Source: Acidobacteriota bacterium (lineage in GTDB: Bacteria > Acidobacteriota > Terriglobia > 2-12-FULL-54-10). From it: a stretch of DNA of 39,268 nucleotides. The notes beneath the pieces are model-generated. The model worked only from the letters and a program-made list of their open reading frames with translations, was not told the DNA's origin and searched no databases. Positions 28,796 through 36,686 of this stretch are shown here, piece after piece. Both the position numbers and the translations under genes were made by a program. Positions within the stretch are counted from its first letter, which is position 1; each line of letters begins with the position of its first letter. The stretch is taken from NCBI GenBank assembly GCA_022567475.1, contig JADFGZ010000003.1, positions 1 through 39,268 of the forward strand, in the 5' to 3' direction.

Positions 28796-29131
28796 ATGGT
28801 ATCGTTAACCCCAGGAGCAGTGAGCAAGGTAAAAGAGATCATGAGCCAGCAAAAACCGAAGCCGGTGGGACTACGGCTTGGGATCGTCGGCGGAGGTTGC
28901 TCCGGATTTTCCTATTCGATGACCTTTGAAACCAATGCCAACGGAGACGACTTCAGCATGGACAAGATTTTTGAATTCGACGGAGTGAAAGTCTTCGTGG
29001 ACCAAGCCAGCTTGCTGTATCTCGACAATACCGAAGTTGACTTCACCGATTCCATCGAAGGCGTTGGGTTTAAGTTTTCCAACCCGAACGTGAAAAGCAC
29101 TTGCGGGTGCGGCAGCTCGTTCAGCGTCTAA
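28796..29131 (+). CDS. A-type iron-sulfur carrier (HesB/IscA/ErpA family)
   Basis: 111 residues with the three conserved cysteines C35 (in 'GGGCSGFSY'), C103 and C105 (in 'STCGCGSSF'), which hold a transient Fe-S cluster that is passed to client enzymes. The sequence is closest to ErpA/IscA-type carriers. AAGGAGG lies ahead of the ATG at normal distance and a good promoter stands upstream. Clients nearby include MoaA, the radical SAM protein at 31230 and others that need [4Fe-4S] clusters. An IscU-like scaffold is encoded at 36330. Confidence 0.92.
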   Translation: MVSLTPGAVSKVKEIMSQQKPKPVGLRLGIVGGGCSGFSYSMTFETNANGDDFSMDKIFEFDGVKVFVDQASLLYLDNTEVDFTDSIEGVGFKFSNPNVKSTCGCGSSFSV

Positions 29132-31229: not shown

Positions 31230-32639
31230 ATGAACGTTGTTCTTCTATCAACCTATGAACTGGGCCGGCAACCGTTTGGGCTGGCCTCGCCGGCGGCATG
31301 GCTGCGGGAGGCTGGCGCCACGGTCACCTGTTTGGACCTCTCCCGCACCGCCTTCGAGGAGGAACCGATCCGCTCGGCGGACCTGGTGGGTTTCTACGTT
31401 CCCATGCACACGGCCACCCGCATCGCCACGCTTCTGGCCGGACGAGTGAGGAAGTTGAACCCTCGGGCGCATCTGTGTTTCTTCGGCCTTTATGCTCCCG
31501 TCAACGAGAGCTTCCTGCGAAAGCTGGGAGCCGAGACGATCCTCGGCGGCGAGTTTGAAGCGGGACTGCTGGCACTCGTCGAAAGGTTGCAGACAACAAA
31601 CCAACAGACTGCCGGGCTCCCGCAGCACGAGCCGGTGATTTCAACCGCACGGCAACGGTTCCGTGTCCCGGACCGCAGTGGACTCCCCGCCCTGCGAGAC
31701 TATGCAAAACTCGATTGGGGCAACGGCGAACAGCGCGTGGTCGGGTACACGGAAGCGAGCCGGGGCTGCAAGCACCTTTGCCGCCACTGCCCGGTTGTGC
31801 CGGTCTATCAGGGCCGTTTCCGCGTTGTCCAGCGAGAAGTGGTGATCGAGGACATCCGGAGGCAGGTGGCGGCGGGAGCCTCGCACATCACCTTCGGCGA
31901 CCCGGACTTCTTCAACGGGGTCGGGCACTCCCTGGCGATTGTGGATGAACTTCACCGCGCCCACCCGCACCTCACCTACGATGCCACGATCAAGATCGAG
32001 CATCTGCTCCAGCATGCGCGGCACTTGAGAACGCTCCGCGACACCGGATGCCTGTTTGTGACGAGCGCGGTGGAAGCTGTCGATGACCGCGTGCTGCGCC
32101 TTCTGGACAAAGGCCACACGCGGGAAGACTTTGTGCAAGTGGTCAAGCTGGTTCGCAATGCGGGGCTGCATCTCTCGCCCACCTTTGTAACCTTTACGCC
32201 GTGGACATCGCTGGAAGGTTACCTGGATATGCTTTCGCTGATGGCCGAACTGGACTTGGCGGAGAGTATCGCCCCCATCCAGTTGGCCATTCGCTTGCTG
32301 ATCCCCGCCGGCTCAAGGCTCCTGGAACTGCCTGAAATGCGCGCACAGGTCGGAGAATTCGATGAGGGAGCGCTGAGTTATCCGTGGATACATCACGATG
32401 CCCGGGTGGAACAGTTGTTTCAGGATGTCCGCGAGACCGTGGGCCGGACGGAAGCTCTCGGCCAAACCCGCAGCGAAATCTTTTTCCAAGTTTGGGAGAT
32501 GGCCGAGCGCGCGGCTGGAAAGAAGGGCGCGGCCACTTTCAGGATGGAACCGCTCCCCGCACGGGCGACGATTCCCTACATCAACGAGCCCTGGTTCTGC
32601 TGAGCGGAGCCTACCGCAGAGCAGTTTGCTCTGGTTTAG
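31230..32639 (+). CDS. CUAEP-tail radical SAM selenoprotein (B12-binding-like N-terminus)
   Basis: Read through the TGA at 32601-32603 this is a 469-residue protein. Residues 1-120 resemble a B12-binding domain but lack the DxHxxG cobalamin ligand motif. The radical SAM cluster motif is C180-x3-C184-x2-C187 in 'SRGCKHLCRHCP'. The C-terminus reads 'INEPWFC', then TGA, then AEPTAEQFALV and TAG. A Cys-Sec-Ala-Glu-Pro tail is the hallmark of the CUAEP/CCAEP-tail radical SAM family, where Sec or Cys occupies the position. A hairpin at 32617-32633 fits a bacterial SECIS. A conventional gene caller would stop at 32603 and lose the tail. Start ATG 31230 has a weak ribosome binding site. Its substrate is unknown; an ATP-grasp gene follows. 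Confidence 0.88.
32601..32633 (+). other. Selenocysteine UGA codon and SECIS-like hairpin
   Basis: TGA at 32601-32603 is followed by a perfect 7-bp stem CAGAGCA/TGCTCTG (32617-32623 with 32627-32633) with loop GTT. The loop starts 21 nucleotides after the UGA with a G, satisfying the bacterial SECIS model, and sits inside the coding extension. Confidence 0.82.
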
Positions 32640-32680: not shown

Positions 32681-32723
32681 GAGGACAGTAACAAAAAGCG
32701 GTTTTACAACCTGCTTTAAGGTA

Positions 32724-32894
32724 TTGTCAGGGCACGGTTTCAACCGTGCCGAAGATGCAGTGCAATAAACACGGCTTCAGCCGCTGAGGTATGAAGCGGA
32801 CCTTCGATTCGCTGCGTTTGATAAGCCACCTCAGGCGCTAAAGCGCTTCTTGGAGAGGAACTGCAACGGCAGGACTAAAGTCGTGCCCTGACAA
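32724..32894. mobile_element. 171-bp palindromic element with 13-bp terminal inverted repeats
   Basis: 'ttgtcagggcacg' (32724-32736) and 'cgtgccctgacaa' (32882-32894) are perfect inverted repeats. The left end is itself part of the palindrome ggcacggtt-tc-aaccgtgcc (32731-32750), and the interior has 'aggcgctaaagcgctt' near 32832. Its core words are shared with the elements at 11-24 and 10791-10937. No coding capacity; a MITE- or REP-like element. Confidence 0.62.
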
Positions 32895-33056
32895 AACAAG
32901 GATAATTTTGAAGCAACTTTTAGTGACCAGTTGGCAGTGACCTGTCTCGTCATTTAACAGTTGTCACTCATCACTTGTCACTTATAAGTCCCTTCTCCAC
33001 TTGCATGGTAAATCGATCCCGGTAAAACTCTTTAGTCAAGCTCCTCCAGAAAAACA

Positions 33057-34331
33057 GTGCAGAAAAACCGTCTTTTATTGCTGTTCACCACCACCGGCTA
33101 TCAGGCCGCCACATTTAAGGAGGCCGCCGAAAAGCTCGGCATCGCCGTCGTGGCGGGCAGCGACCGCTGCCATGTATTGGAAGACCCCTGGCGGGACGGC
33201 GCTATTCCATTACGATTTGAAGAGCCCACTGCTTCTGTGGAATCTATTGTGCAATACGCTAGCCATCACAGGCTGGACGCAGTCCTCCCGGTTGGCGACA
33301 AACCCACCCTCACCGCCGCGATGGCCTGCCAGACGCTCGGTTTGTTGCACAACTCTCCCGCAGCCGTTCGGGCCTGTCGCGACAAGTATCAGTTCCGCCA
33401 GCTTCTCCAGTCCGCAGGGGTGGATGGCCCCGCCTTCTGCCGGTTTCCCGCGCAAAACGATCCTCCCTCCACTCCACCGGGGGTGGCATTTCCCTGCGTC
33501 CTGAAACCGTTGTCGCTCTCGGCCAGCCGGGGAGTGATCCGGGCGGACAACACAGAGCAATTCACCGCCGCATTCCGGAAAATCCAGGCGTTGCTCAAAA
33601 CGCCGGATATCCGAAGGACAAAAGACGAGGCAATCGAGTGGATACTAGCCGAAAGCTACCTGGAAGGGCCGGAAGTGGCCTTGGAGGGGATTCTCGACCG
33701 GGGCGCTTTGCAGGTCCTGGCCCTGTTTGACAAGCCGGACCCGCTGGAAGGCCCCTATTTTGAGGAGACGATCTACACGACTCCTTCCCGATTACCCGAA
33801 GCCACCCAGCATCAGATCATACGGTGCACAGAGCAAGCCATCGCGGCGGTGGGACTATCCCACGGGCCGATTCATGCCGAGCTGCGGCTGACGCCACAGG
33901 GTCCCCGGATTCTGGAAGTGGCAGCGCGCTCAATTGGCGGCCTCTGCTCCCGTTCGCTGCGGTTTGATGCGGGCATGTCACTTGAAGAGTTGATTATTCG
34001 CCATGCCCTGAAGCTGCCCATCGGCTCGGTACGCCGCGAGGCAGCCGCCTCCGGGGTGATGATGATTCCTGTTCCCGCAGCGGGAGTGCTGCTGGAGGTG
34101 AGGGGCCAAGAGAAGGCGCTCGAAACTCCGGGCATCGAGGAGATCCGCATTACGGCCAAAATACAGCAGACTCTGGTTCCCTGGCCGGAGGGTTCCAGCT
34201 ACCTGGGATTTATTTTCGCGCGCGCGGCTTCGTCTTCTTCCCCGGCGGCGGAGGAGGTTGAGGCCGCCTTGAGAACTGCCCACAGCAAGTTGCAATTTGT
34301 GATTTCCCCTGCCCTGCCCGTGGTGCGCTAG
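33057..34331 (+). CDS. ATP-grasp domain protein (carboxylate-amine ligase type)
   Basis: 424 residues. An N-terminal Rossmann-like part ('RLLLLFTTTGYQ', 'AVLPVGDKPTLTAAM') is followed by an ATP-grasp fold with 'KYQFRQLLQSAGVDGP', 'FPCVLKPLSLSASRGVI', 'EWILAESYLEGPEVALEG' and the metal-binding 'AELRLTPQGPRILEVAARSIGG'. Such enzymes activate a carboxylate as acyl-phosphate and join it to an amine, as in BacD/PurK-like dipeptide ligases. The GTG start has little ribosome binding site. It follows the selenoprotein radical SAM gene across a repeat-filled gap, so a functional link is possible but not shown. The substrate is unknown. Confidence 0.82.
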   Translation: MQKNRLLLLFTTTGYQAATFKEAAEKLGIAVVAGSDRCHVLEDPWRDGAIPLRFEEPTASVESIVQYASHHRLDAVLPVGDKPTLTAAMACQTLGLLHNSPAAVRACRDKYQFRQLLQSAGVDGPAFCRFPAQNDPPSTPPGVAFPCVLKPLSLSASRGVIRADNTEQFTAAFRKIQALLKTPDIRRTKDEAIEWILAESYLEGPEVALEGILDRGALQVLALFDKPDPLEGPYFEETIYTTPSRLPEATQHQIIRCTEQAIAAVGLSHGPIHAELRLTPQGPRILEVAARSIGGLCSRSLRFDAGMSLEELIIRHALKLPIGSVRREAAASGVMMIPVPAAGVLLEVRGQEKALETPGIEEIRITAKIQQTLVPWPEGSSYLGFIFARAASSSSPAAEEVEAALRTAHSKLQFVISPALPVVR

Positions 34332-34359: not shown

Positions 34360-34641
34360 TTACTGCTTGGTCTGCTCAGGGACATAACCCGGAGGAAGCG
34401 CGGCGCCTTCGCCGAAAAAGTAATCCTCCATCTGCTGACGAACGATCTTTTGCGCCTCGCGCTCCACCAGGTTGAGCCGGTATTCGTTGACGACCATCTT
34501 CAGGTGCTCCAGCCACATTTTCCAGGCGTCCGCCGAGACATTCTCGTAGATGCGCTTGCCGAGATCGTTGTTGAAGGGAGGCTCCTCCAGGCCGGGAAGC
34601 TCACGCTGAAACTTGACGCATTTCACCATTTTTGGTGCCAT
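34360..34641 (-). CDS. YggX-family Fe(2+)-trafficking/oxidative damage protection protein
   Basis: 93 residues from ATG 34641, where AGGGAGG stands close upstream; a longer in-frame reading to 34704 adds a hydrophobic stretch with no family counterpart. The body matches YggX: 'MVKCVKFQRELPGLEEPPF', 'LGKRIYENVSADAWKMWLEH', 'MVVNEYRLNLVEREAQKIV' and 'QMEDYFFGEGA', including the single conserved N-terminal cysteine. YggX protects Fe-S proteins from oxidants and helps in iron handling. It is convergent with the ATP-grasp gene and lies among Fe-S and Mo-cofactor genes, which fits that role. Confidence 0.92.
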   Translation of the reverse strand: MAPKMVKCVKFQRELPGLEEPPFNNDLGKRIYENVSADAWKMWLEHLKMVVNEYRLNLVEREAQKIVRQQMEDYFFGEGAALPPGYVPEQTKQ

Positions 34642-34853
34642 TTTTCCTCCCTTTGTCGCGGCTCTTGCTGCCACCGAAGCGGCCAAACACACGGTCAGAC
34701 ACACCGTGATGATGCGGATGATGCGCAGGATATGCTCATCCCGCGAACAATCAGCCTACGAGCATTCTCCGCACCTTGTCAACGTTTAAGTATTTTTCGG
34801 AAAAAAGGAGAGAAGTTGAAAACCTCCTCGCCACTGCGATAACATAGCTGTAC

Positions 34854-36329: not shown

Positions 36330-36686
36330 TCACTGGAGTTGGCGAAGCGCCTCGCGCAAAGCGTCTTCCGCCAGGACGCCGGCATGCCCGCTCGCAGGCG
36401 GCAACCCGCCGAGTCCGGCGCTGAGGTCGGCGGCTGACAGCTTTTTTGCTTCCTCCAGCGATTTTCCTTTGATGAGTTCGGTGAGCAGCGACCCGCAGGC
36501 GATGGACGCCACACAGCCACGGGTTTTGAAGCGGACATCCCGGAGATGCCCCTGCCCGGCCAGCAGGGAGAGTTGCATGATGTCTCCGCAGGCCGGGTTG
36601 CTGACCTCCACCGTCACGGCGGGGGACGGAAGCTCCCCCACGTTTCGAGGATTCTGGAAGTGGTCGAGCAGCAAATCGCTGTACAC
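36330..36686 (-). CDS. IscU/NifU-like scaffold protein lacking the third cysteine
   Basis: 118 residues with the IscU/NifU N-terminal fold: 'YSDLLLDHFQNPRNVGEL', 'NPACGD' (C33, D35), 'RFKTRGCVASIACGS' (C58, C64). The C-terminal motif that normally reads HC..LA.DA is 'GHAGVLAEDAL', so H101 is present but the third cluster cysteine (C106 in E. coli IscU) is A102. That residue is important for sulfur acceptance and cluster assembly, so the protein may be a specialised or degenerate scaffold. The GTG start has GGAGG close upstream, inside a 14-bp triplicated sequence. No cysteine desulfurase gene is adjacent. Confidence 0.88.
   Translation of the reverse strand: MYSDLLLDHFQNPRNVGELPSPAVTVEVSNPACGDIMQLSLLAGQGHLRDVRFKTRGCVASIACGSLLTELIKGKSLEEAKKLSAADLSAGLGGLPPASGHAGVLAEDALREALRQLQ

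What the first reader, a model, noticed from the sequence alone, without database searches (positions are those of the whole stretch)
31230..32639. Radical SAM selenoprotein whose true end lies beyond the TGA
The frame continues after the TGA as Ala-Glu-Pro-Thr and stops 11 codons later at TAG. The tail Cys-Sec-Ala-Glu-Pro is the defining feature of the CUAEP/CCAEP-tail radical SAM family, and a 7-bp hairpin with a G-starting loop lies 21 nt after the UGA. Cys-Sec pairs are usually redox-active, so this is a radical enzyme with a selenenylsulfide-capable C-terminal tail and no known substrate.
Basis: partly seen in the sequence, partly recalled or inferred. Interest (0 to 1): 0.82.

Follow-up and report, generated by a model that had tools for sequence, protein, structure and literature searches.

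The report
Selenium-tailed radical enzyme, ArsL-like pathway
This gene really encodes a selenium-containing radical enzyme that reads through a stop codon; it belongs to a named but functionally uncharacterised family, and its closest relative (the enzyme that joins carbon to arsenic) and an almost inseparable partner gene for joining amino acids suggest that it makes an unusual amino acid that is then built into a small peptide.

Summary
The 31230-32603 ORF continues through TGA (32601-32603) to TAG at 32637-32639 and ends Cys-Sec-Ala-Glu-Pro. The read-through product matches NCBIfam NF040546 (CUAEP/CCAEP-tail radical SAM (seleno)protein) over 1-467/468 at 627 bits (cut-off 500). The same genome holds tRNA-Sec, SelA, SelB and a SelD with its own in-frame TGA. 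The hairpin after the UGA is a conserved, compensating SECIS stem; most Cys-tailed relatives have lost it. The "selenenylsulfide redox tail" is not specifically supported. The sister family is ArsL (293 bits; [quoted passage not shown] A methionine-ligase-like ATP-grasp dipeptide ligase (33057-34331) follows; it occurs in 63 of 65 CUAEP-positive genomes of a phylum sample and 4 of 331 others. Elsewhere CUAEP genes sit beside NRPS modules, a PLP decarboxylase, ArsP/SaoE-like and SaoD-family genes, or an HgcAB-like protein. Best model: an ACP-transferring enzyme holding a thiophilic acceptor X on Cys-Sec makes a 2-amino-4-X-butanoate, which the ligase couples to an amino acid. X is unknown. New member of a known, functionless family; the pathway is inferred.

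The parts
31230..32639 (+). CUAEP-tail radical SAM selenoprotein, 469 residues with Sec458
   Evidence: NF040546 627 bits, cut-off 500, profile 1-467/468; Pfam Radical_SAM; translation
31767..31790 (+). CX3CX2C motif (Cys180, 184, 187) for the SAM-binding [4Fe-4S] cluster
   Evidence: invariant in 58 of 58 relatives
32598..32612 (+). codons of the tail Cys-Sec-Ala-Glu-Pro; the TGA is 32601-32603
   Evidence: C457, position 458 (Sec or Cys), E460 and P461 invariant in 58 relatives
32617..32633 (+). SECIS stem-loop (consensus arms 32617-32622 with 32628-32633, loop AGTTT; one further A-T pair possible in the window)
   Evidence: compensating changes, 0/500 shuffles as high; mostly absent from Cys genes
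33057..34331 (+). partner gene: ATP-grasp L-amino-acid (dipeptide) ligase
   Evidence: ATP-grasp_4, LAL_C2, ATPgrasp_N over Pfam cut-offs; best solved relative L-amino acid ligase BL00235, 3vot, E 2e-68; co-occurs in 63 of 65 CUAEP genomes
32721..32897 (.). repeated palindromic element between the two genes; not part of the mechanism
   Evidence: 31-nt inverted arms, 77% complementary; partial or full copies in many contigs of the same genome

Best explanation
Shown by sequence: a selenoprotein of family NF040546 whose UGA is decoded as Sec by a downstream SECIS stem, closest to the ArsL family over its whole length, and genetically tied to an ATP-grasp L-amino-acid ligase. [quoted passage not shown] The flexible C-terminal Cys-Sec tail presents a bound thiophilic acceptor X (arsenic, selenium or another metalloid or metal) to that radical. 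The product is an amino acid, 2-amino-4-X-butanoate, which the neighbouring ligase joins to a second amino acid to give a dipeptide. In some lineages an NRPS module or other amino-acid enzyme lies next to the gene instead. Steps not shown: SAM regiochemistry, identity of X, tail function, ligase substrates.
For: Sister family: NF040542 ArsL scores 293 bits over residues 4-402, the next family only 54.6; 53 columns are invariant in both CUAEP and ArsL samples, including E-x-G-x-Q-P, RGC-x-H-x-C-x2-C, G-x2-H-x2-F-x-D-x-D, A-x-E, PW, Q-x3-RL-x4-S-x-LL, and both end in an adjacent Cys pair. In ArsL, expression of arsL in E. coli turns As(III) into hydroxyarsinothricin, and ACP transfer is proposed as the mechanism (PMC8552651). 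An amino-acid product fits the neighbours: L-amino-acid ligase in 63 of 65 CUAEP genomes against 4 of 331 others, 45 of 62 on the same contig; its best solved relative is BL00235, known to me as a methionine-selective dipeptide ligase, and methionine is itself an ACP-S compound; NRPS A-PCP beside the gene in Virgisporangium L115; NRPS modules in the clusters of L060 and L063; a PLP amino-acid decarboxylase next to it in Actinopolyspora L127. RCCLKC-type plasmid loci also carry an ATP-grasp ligase of the same broad family. Metal(loid) hints: ArsP_1 permease and SaoD/DsrE-family gene in L127, SaoD/DsrE-family in L118, HgcAB-like plus CpaM in L060 and L063. The model gives the tail residues 451-460 a mean pLDDT of 85 after a linker of 62-68, as expected of a docked tail on a flexible arm.
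Against: Arsenic genes are not generally near CUAEP genes: in about 100 loci an arsM query hit none and an arsC query two, neither adjacent, whereas ArsL sits in ars operons. The ArsL model's own cut-off (450) is not met and the RCCLKC tail is absent. The HgcAB-like link is limited to two clusters; genome-wide the two families do not co-occur above chance (2 of 14 HgcAB-like genomes). The ATP-grasp enzymes of the two systems are only about 25-29% identical, so shared pathway logic rather than orthology. No model coordinates were available to measure the distance from the tail to the cluster.
Confidence: 0.5

Rival explanations
1. Redox-tail reading: the enzyme makes an ordinary 5'-deoxyadenosyl radical, and the Cys-Sec pair is a selenenylsulfide that re-reduces the enzyme, a disulfide substrate or a thiyl intermediate.
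For: Vicinal Cys-Sec at a C-terminal tail is known from thioredoxin reductases (my own knowledge); Sec and Cys interchange at least several times on the tree (14 changes, 6 forced by well-supported branches), which suits a redox or a ligand role.
Against: The sister family with a Cys-Cys tail acts on arsenic; no reductase or thioredoxin-like gene is a common neighbour; adjacent-CU selenoproteins in bacteria are often metal-binding (PMC13188914).
Confidence: 0.2
2. ArsL-like protein with a changed job: the ArsL kinship shows only fold and SAM binding, and CUAEP does different chemistry (for example C-S bond formation, dehydrogenation or peptide modification) with the ATP-grasp protein adding an amino acid to that other product.
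For: Radical SAM subfamilies can change reaction at about 32% identity; the model's nearest solved folds are AprD4, TsrM and OxsB, which catalyse diverse reactions; ars operons are absent.
Against: 53 shared invariant columns and the matching tail position; the next family is far weaker; amino-acid-handling partners in several independent contexts.
Confidence: 0.25
3. The TGA is an ordinary stop and the downstream CUAEP reading is chance or a decayed remnant.
For: An ORF caller stops there.
Against: Compensating SECIS stem, invariance of C-[U/C]-x-E-P beyond the stop across many phyla, complete Sec machinery.
Confidence: 0.02

Closest known systems
NF040546, CUAEP/CCAEP-tail radical SAM (seleno)protein (NCBIfam equivalog)
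   Same: Whole length, CX3CX2C, tail, Sec at the expected place, score over cut-off.
   Different: Nothing found; it is an ordinary Sec-type member. The family's function is not stated.
ArsL, arsinothricin biosynthesis radical SAM enzyme (NF040542, RCCLKC tail)
   Same: Homologous over about 400 residues, shared active-site motifs, C-terminal adjacent Cys pair, ATP-grasp gene nearby in several RCCLKC plasmid loci.
   Different: Below the ArsL cut-off; tail CUAEP after about 60 extra residues instead of RCCLKC; no ars operon, no arsM nearby in the loci tested.
L-amino acid ligases BL00235 and BacD (for the partner gene)
   Same: ATP-grasp_4 and LAL_C2 domains; E 2e-68 to 3vot, 1e-32 to BacD.
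   Different: A separate conserved family with its own motif FDKPDPLEGPYFEETIYVTPSR...IGGLC; substrates unknown.
SAO (Sec-assisted organometallic) selenoproteins, e.g. SaoL, SaoC, HgcA
   Same: Adjacent Cys-Sec or Cys-Cys; SaoD/DsrE-family and SaoE/ArsP-like neighbours in a few CUAEP loci (PMC13188914).
   Different: No SAO operon at the window; different folds.

Membership tests
NF040546 CUAEP/CCAEP-tail radical SAM (seleno)protein | Score over the curated cut-off of 500 bits | tested here: met
   627.3 bits with TGA read through; 620.6 bits in the genome search
NF040546 CUAEP/CCAEP-tail radical SAM (seleno)protein | Full-length coverage including the C-terminal tail C-[U/C]-A-E-P | tested here: met
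   profile 1-467/468; tail invariant in 58 relatives except A459 at 90% or more
NF040546 CUAEP/CCAEP-tail radical SAM (seleno)protein | Radical SAM CX3CX2C motif | tested here: met
   Cys180-184-187, 58/58
Bacterial selenoprotein | tRNA-Sec, SelA, SelB, SelD in the genome | tested here: met
   all four over their cut-offs
Bacterial selenoprotein | SECIS stem-loop just after the UGA with covariation | tested here: met
Bacterial selenoprotein | Selenium actually incorporated | not testable with these tools
   needs 75Se labelling or mass spectrometry
ArsL (NF040542) | Score over the curated cut-off of 450 bits | tested here: not met
   292.8 bits
ArsL (NF040542) | RCCLKC C-terminal tail | tested here: not met
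   tail is CUAEPTAEQFALV
ArsL (NF040542) | Location in an ars operon with arsM | tested here: not met
   window neighbours and about 100 related loci
ArsL (NF040542) | ACP transfer from SAM to As(III) | not testable with these tools
   needs an in vitro assay
Cobalamin-binding radical SAM enzymes | DxHxxG cobalamin-binding motif | tested here: not met
   motif absent, although the fold resembles B12-binding radical SAM proteins
L-amino acid ligase (partner gene) | ATP-grasp_4 plus LAL_C2 domains over Pfam cut-offs | tested here: met
   105.9 bits (27) and 42.9 bits (29.4)

The most novel reading that the evidence does not exclude
CUAEP radical SAM enzyme and its ATP-grasp partner are a widespread, undescribed two-gene pathway for a dipeptide carrying a carbon-metalloid (As, Se, Te or similar) amino acid, an arsinothricin-like logic that uses selenocysteine in the enzyme to hold the metalloid, found in uncultured soil, groundwater and sediment bacteria of many phyla.
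Probability: 0.25. Interest if true: 0.85.

Novelty: new member of a known kind. Interest (0 to 1): 0.58.

Why it matters
The protein itself is one more member of a family that NCBI has named but for which no function was found. What is useful is the set of clues assembled here: whole-length kinship to ArsL, one of the very few radical SAM enzymes thought to transfer the ACP group, a Cys-Sec tail in place of ArsL's Cys-Cys tail, and a dipeptide ligase that is present almost only where CUAEP is. They turn 'unknown radical SAM selenoprotein' into a short list of assays: does SAM give methylthioadenosine, which element binds the tail, which dipeptide comes out. If true, organometalloid amino-acid chemistry would be common in uncultured bacteria rather than confined to a few ars operons, and selenium would have a role as a metalloid ligand in catalysis.

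Tried and rejected
Rfam scan of the window: nothing over gathering scores, so the SECIS was tested by covariation instead. Plain minimum-energy folding of the window's 60 nt prefers a different outer fold, although the inner stem is kept; covariation was trusted rather than one energy. The 4-nt-loop class of SECIS stems (GGGACC-AGTT-GGTCCC) was left out of the pair count because it sits in another register. Arsenic as the certain acceptor: rejected as unproven, because ars genes are not regular neighbours. HgcAB-like protein as a general partner: rejected; only two clusters, and no genome-level co-occurrence in the phylum sample. In-frame TGA in the ATP-grasp gene as a second selenoprotein: the one case checked (G177) is a normal stop at the C-terminus. 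Cys274 (57/58 conserved) as a third ligand: kept only as a remark, since it lies at the N-terminal end of a barrel strand and ArsL lacks it. Literature: no paper in the open library contains CUAEP or RCCLKC; the four hits with CCAEP inside a word that I could judge by title are unrelated, and so is the fifth; the 2026 review of prokaryotic selenoproteins does not name NF040546; Haft and Gwadz 2023 and Haft and Tolstoy 2025 are not held and could not be read.

Full report
CHECK. The ORF at 31230-32603 ends in TGA; the frame stays open for 11 more codons to TAG at 32637-32639, giving 469 residues with position 458 as the TGA codon and the tail WFC-U-AEPTAEQFALV. NCBIfam NF040546, the CUAEP/CCAEP-tail radical SAM (seleno)protein family, matches from 1 to 467 of 468 positions with 627 bits against a cut-off of 500. 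The genome that holds the window (4.17 Mb in 432 contigs, 83% complete) has a tRNA-Sec (72.8 bits; anticodon tca), SelB, SelA and SelD, each over its family's cut-off, and SelD itself has an in-frame TGA.

SECIS. In the window the 17 nt at 32617-32633 fold as CAGAGCA-GTT-TGCTCTG; in the family the common register is a 6-bp stem with a 5-nt loop AGTTN. On 49 distinct Sec genes (ungapped, the 4-nt-loop class left out) 94.6% of the pair cells are paired, 50 cells are changed on both sides against 13.7 expected from shuffles, 0 of 500 shuffles as high, and no slid version comes near. Sequences such as GAGGGTC-AGTTG-GACCCTC, GAGGAGC-AGTTG-GCTCCTC and CGGGGC-AGTTG-GCCCCG show the compensation directly. 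The same stretch codes for the conserved Glu-Gln of the tail, so protein constraint alone must be considered; but Cys-tailed homologues keep the amino acids and not the stem (6 or more pairs in 3 of 24 against 65 of 78 Sec genes; mean z of folding energy +0.1 against -1.7).

FAMILY. 61 of 396 genomes of the window's phylum have a member over the cut-off, 46 of them with an in-frame TGA (my count). Eighty named relatives come from Acidobacteriota, Methylomirabilota/NC10, Chloroflexi, Gemmatimonadota, Latescibacterota, Calditrichota, Planctomycetota, Nitrospira, SAR324, Proteobacteria and Actinomycetota, mostly metagenome-assembled genomes; tails are Sec in 54, Cys in 20 and unread in 6. On a tree built without the tail, Sec and Cys change places 14 times, at least 6 of them forced by well-supported branches. 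Only the cluster cysteines C180, C184, C187, the tail pair 457/458, and nearly always C274 are conserved. The DxHxxG cobalamin motif is absent.

NEAREST FAMILY. The second-best NCBIfam model is ArsL (NF040542) with 293 bits over residues 4-402; the third has 54.6. Aligned with four ArsL/RCCLKC proteins, 53 columns are invariant in both sets, spread over both domains, and the ArsL tail RCCLKC falls on the CUAEP tail, each with an adjacent Cys-Cys or Cys-Sec. CUAEP has about 60 additional residues (helix and linker) before the tail. Rooted between them, the two families are separate with full support. ArsL is required for making hydroxyarsinothricin from As(III) and SAM in E. coli, and the ACP radical mechanism is proposed for it (PMC8552651); a 2024 preprint on C-As bond formation by this enzyme is cited in PMC11048331 but was not held. 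By its own cut-off and tail, CUAEP is not an ArsL.

PARTNER. The next gene, 33057-34331, is an ATP-grasp protein with the L-amino acid ligase C-terminal domain. Homologues 44-59% identical to it lie next to CUAEP genes in many phyla, usually immediately downstream, sometimes convergent or upstream. In the 396-genome sample it is found (E at most 1e-90) in 63 of 65 genomes with CUAEP (counting four fragmentary ones) and in 4 of 331 without, Fisher p about 1e-65; in 45 of 62 genomes both lie on one contig. Genomes are related, so the p value overstates independence, but the pattern spans many families. The best solved relative is the L-amino acid ligase BL00235 (3vot), E 2e-68, before BacD. From my own knowledge BL00235 prefers methionine as its first substrate, which is an ACP-S-CH3 amino acid, the shape expected of an ACP-X product.

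OTHER CONTEXTS. Virgisporangium (L115, Cys tail): TauD oxygenase, CUAEP, NRPS A-PCP, CmlA-type diiron hydroxylase. Pyrinomonadaceae (L060) and Terriglobia (L063): CUAEP, DUF169, CpaM methyltransferase, HgcAB-like fusion protein, with NRPS modules nearby; L060 also has a capreomycidine-synthase-like PLP enzyme. Actinopolyspora (L127, Cys tail): CUAEP, PLP decarboxylase, ArsP_1/SO_0444/SaoE-like permease (below the family cut-offs for SaoE and SO_0444), SaoD/DsrE-family protein; the last also in Methylocapsa L118. NfuA-like Fe-S carrier genes stand directly upstream in 12 loci. DUF169 is adjacent in 7. ArsL-type plasmid loci carry an ATP-grasp ligase too, 25-29% identical in its best local matches. 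These are the grounds for an amino-acid product and for a metal(loid) acceptor; the first is the stronger.

LIMITS. arsM, arsB, arsR, arsQ and arsN1 queries found nothing near CUAEP genes and arsC only two distant cases, so arsenic itself is not favoured by context. HgcAB-like proteins are in 14 of the 396 genomes, two of which have CUAEP, as chance would give, and those loci show no CUAEP gene beside them.

STRUCTURE. AlphaFold2 on 58 relatives gave mean pLDDT 93.1 and pTM 0.91; a low-confidence linker (431-450, 62-68) is followed by the tail block 451-460 at 85, which suggests that the tail docks on the body. Nearest solved folds are AprD4, TsrM, OxsB and MgmA.

CONCLUSION. Certain: a selenoprotein of NF040546 with a true end at 32639. 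Likely: functionally coupled to the ligase. Moderately likely (0.5): ArsL-type ACP transfer to an acceptor held by Cys-Sec, followed by dipeptide formation. Unknown: the acceptor. The window's phylum is probably Acidobacteriota, judged from its relatives; it was not tested by itself.

Noticed in passing
window 32721-32897: A palindromic element of about 170-180 bp with 31-nt inverted arms lies between the radical SAM and ligase genes and has 60-odd matching pieces in the same genome; it explains why the gap is 418 bp here and usually under 100 bp elsewhere.
   Followed up: partly
G000:C138:2570-3508 (L018): The genome's SelD has an in-frame TGA inside the match, so it is probably itself a selenoprotein.
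   Followed up: no
L060 5095-17410 and L063 7992-16905: CUAEP radical SAM, DUF169, CpaM and an HgcAB-like fusion protein in one row beside NRPS modules: possible organometal-containing peptide clusters.
   Followed up: partly
L127 8001-12140 (Actinopolyspora xinjiangensis): CUAEP (Cys form), PLP decarboxylase, ArsP_1 permease and SaoD/DsrE-family gene in a row in a cultured species, a practical test organism.
   Followed up: partly
L154, L155, L156 (Alicyclobacillus, Priestia, Klebsiella plasmids): RCCLKC-type loci contain an ATP-grasp ligase gene next to arsM or ArsR-type genes, suggesting that arsinothricin-type amino acids may be built into peptides.
   Followed up: partly
window 28796-29131, 34360-34704, 36330-36686: ErpA/IscA-like, Fe(2+)-trafficking (YggX-like) and NifU_N proteins surround the gene; the YggX-like gene recurs near CUAEP in 31 of 81 loci.
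   Followed up: partly
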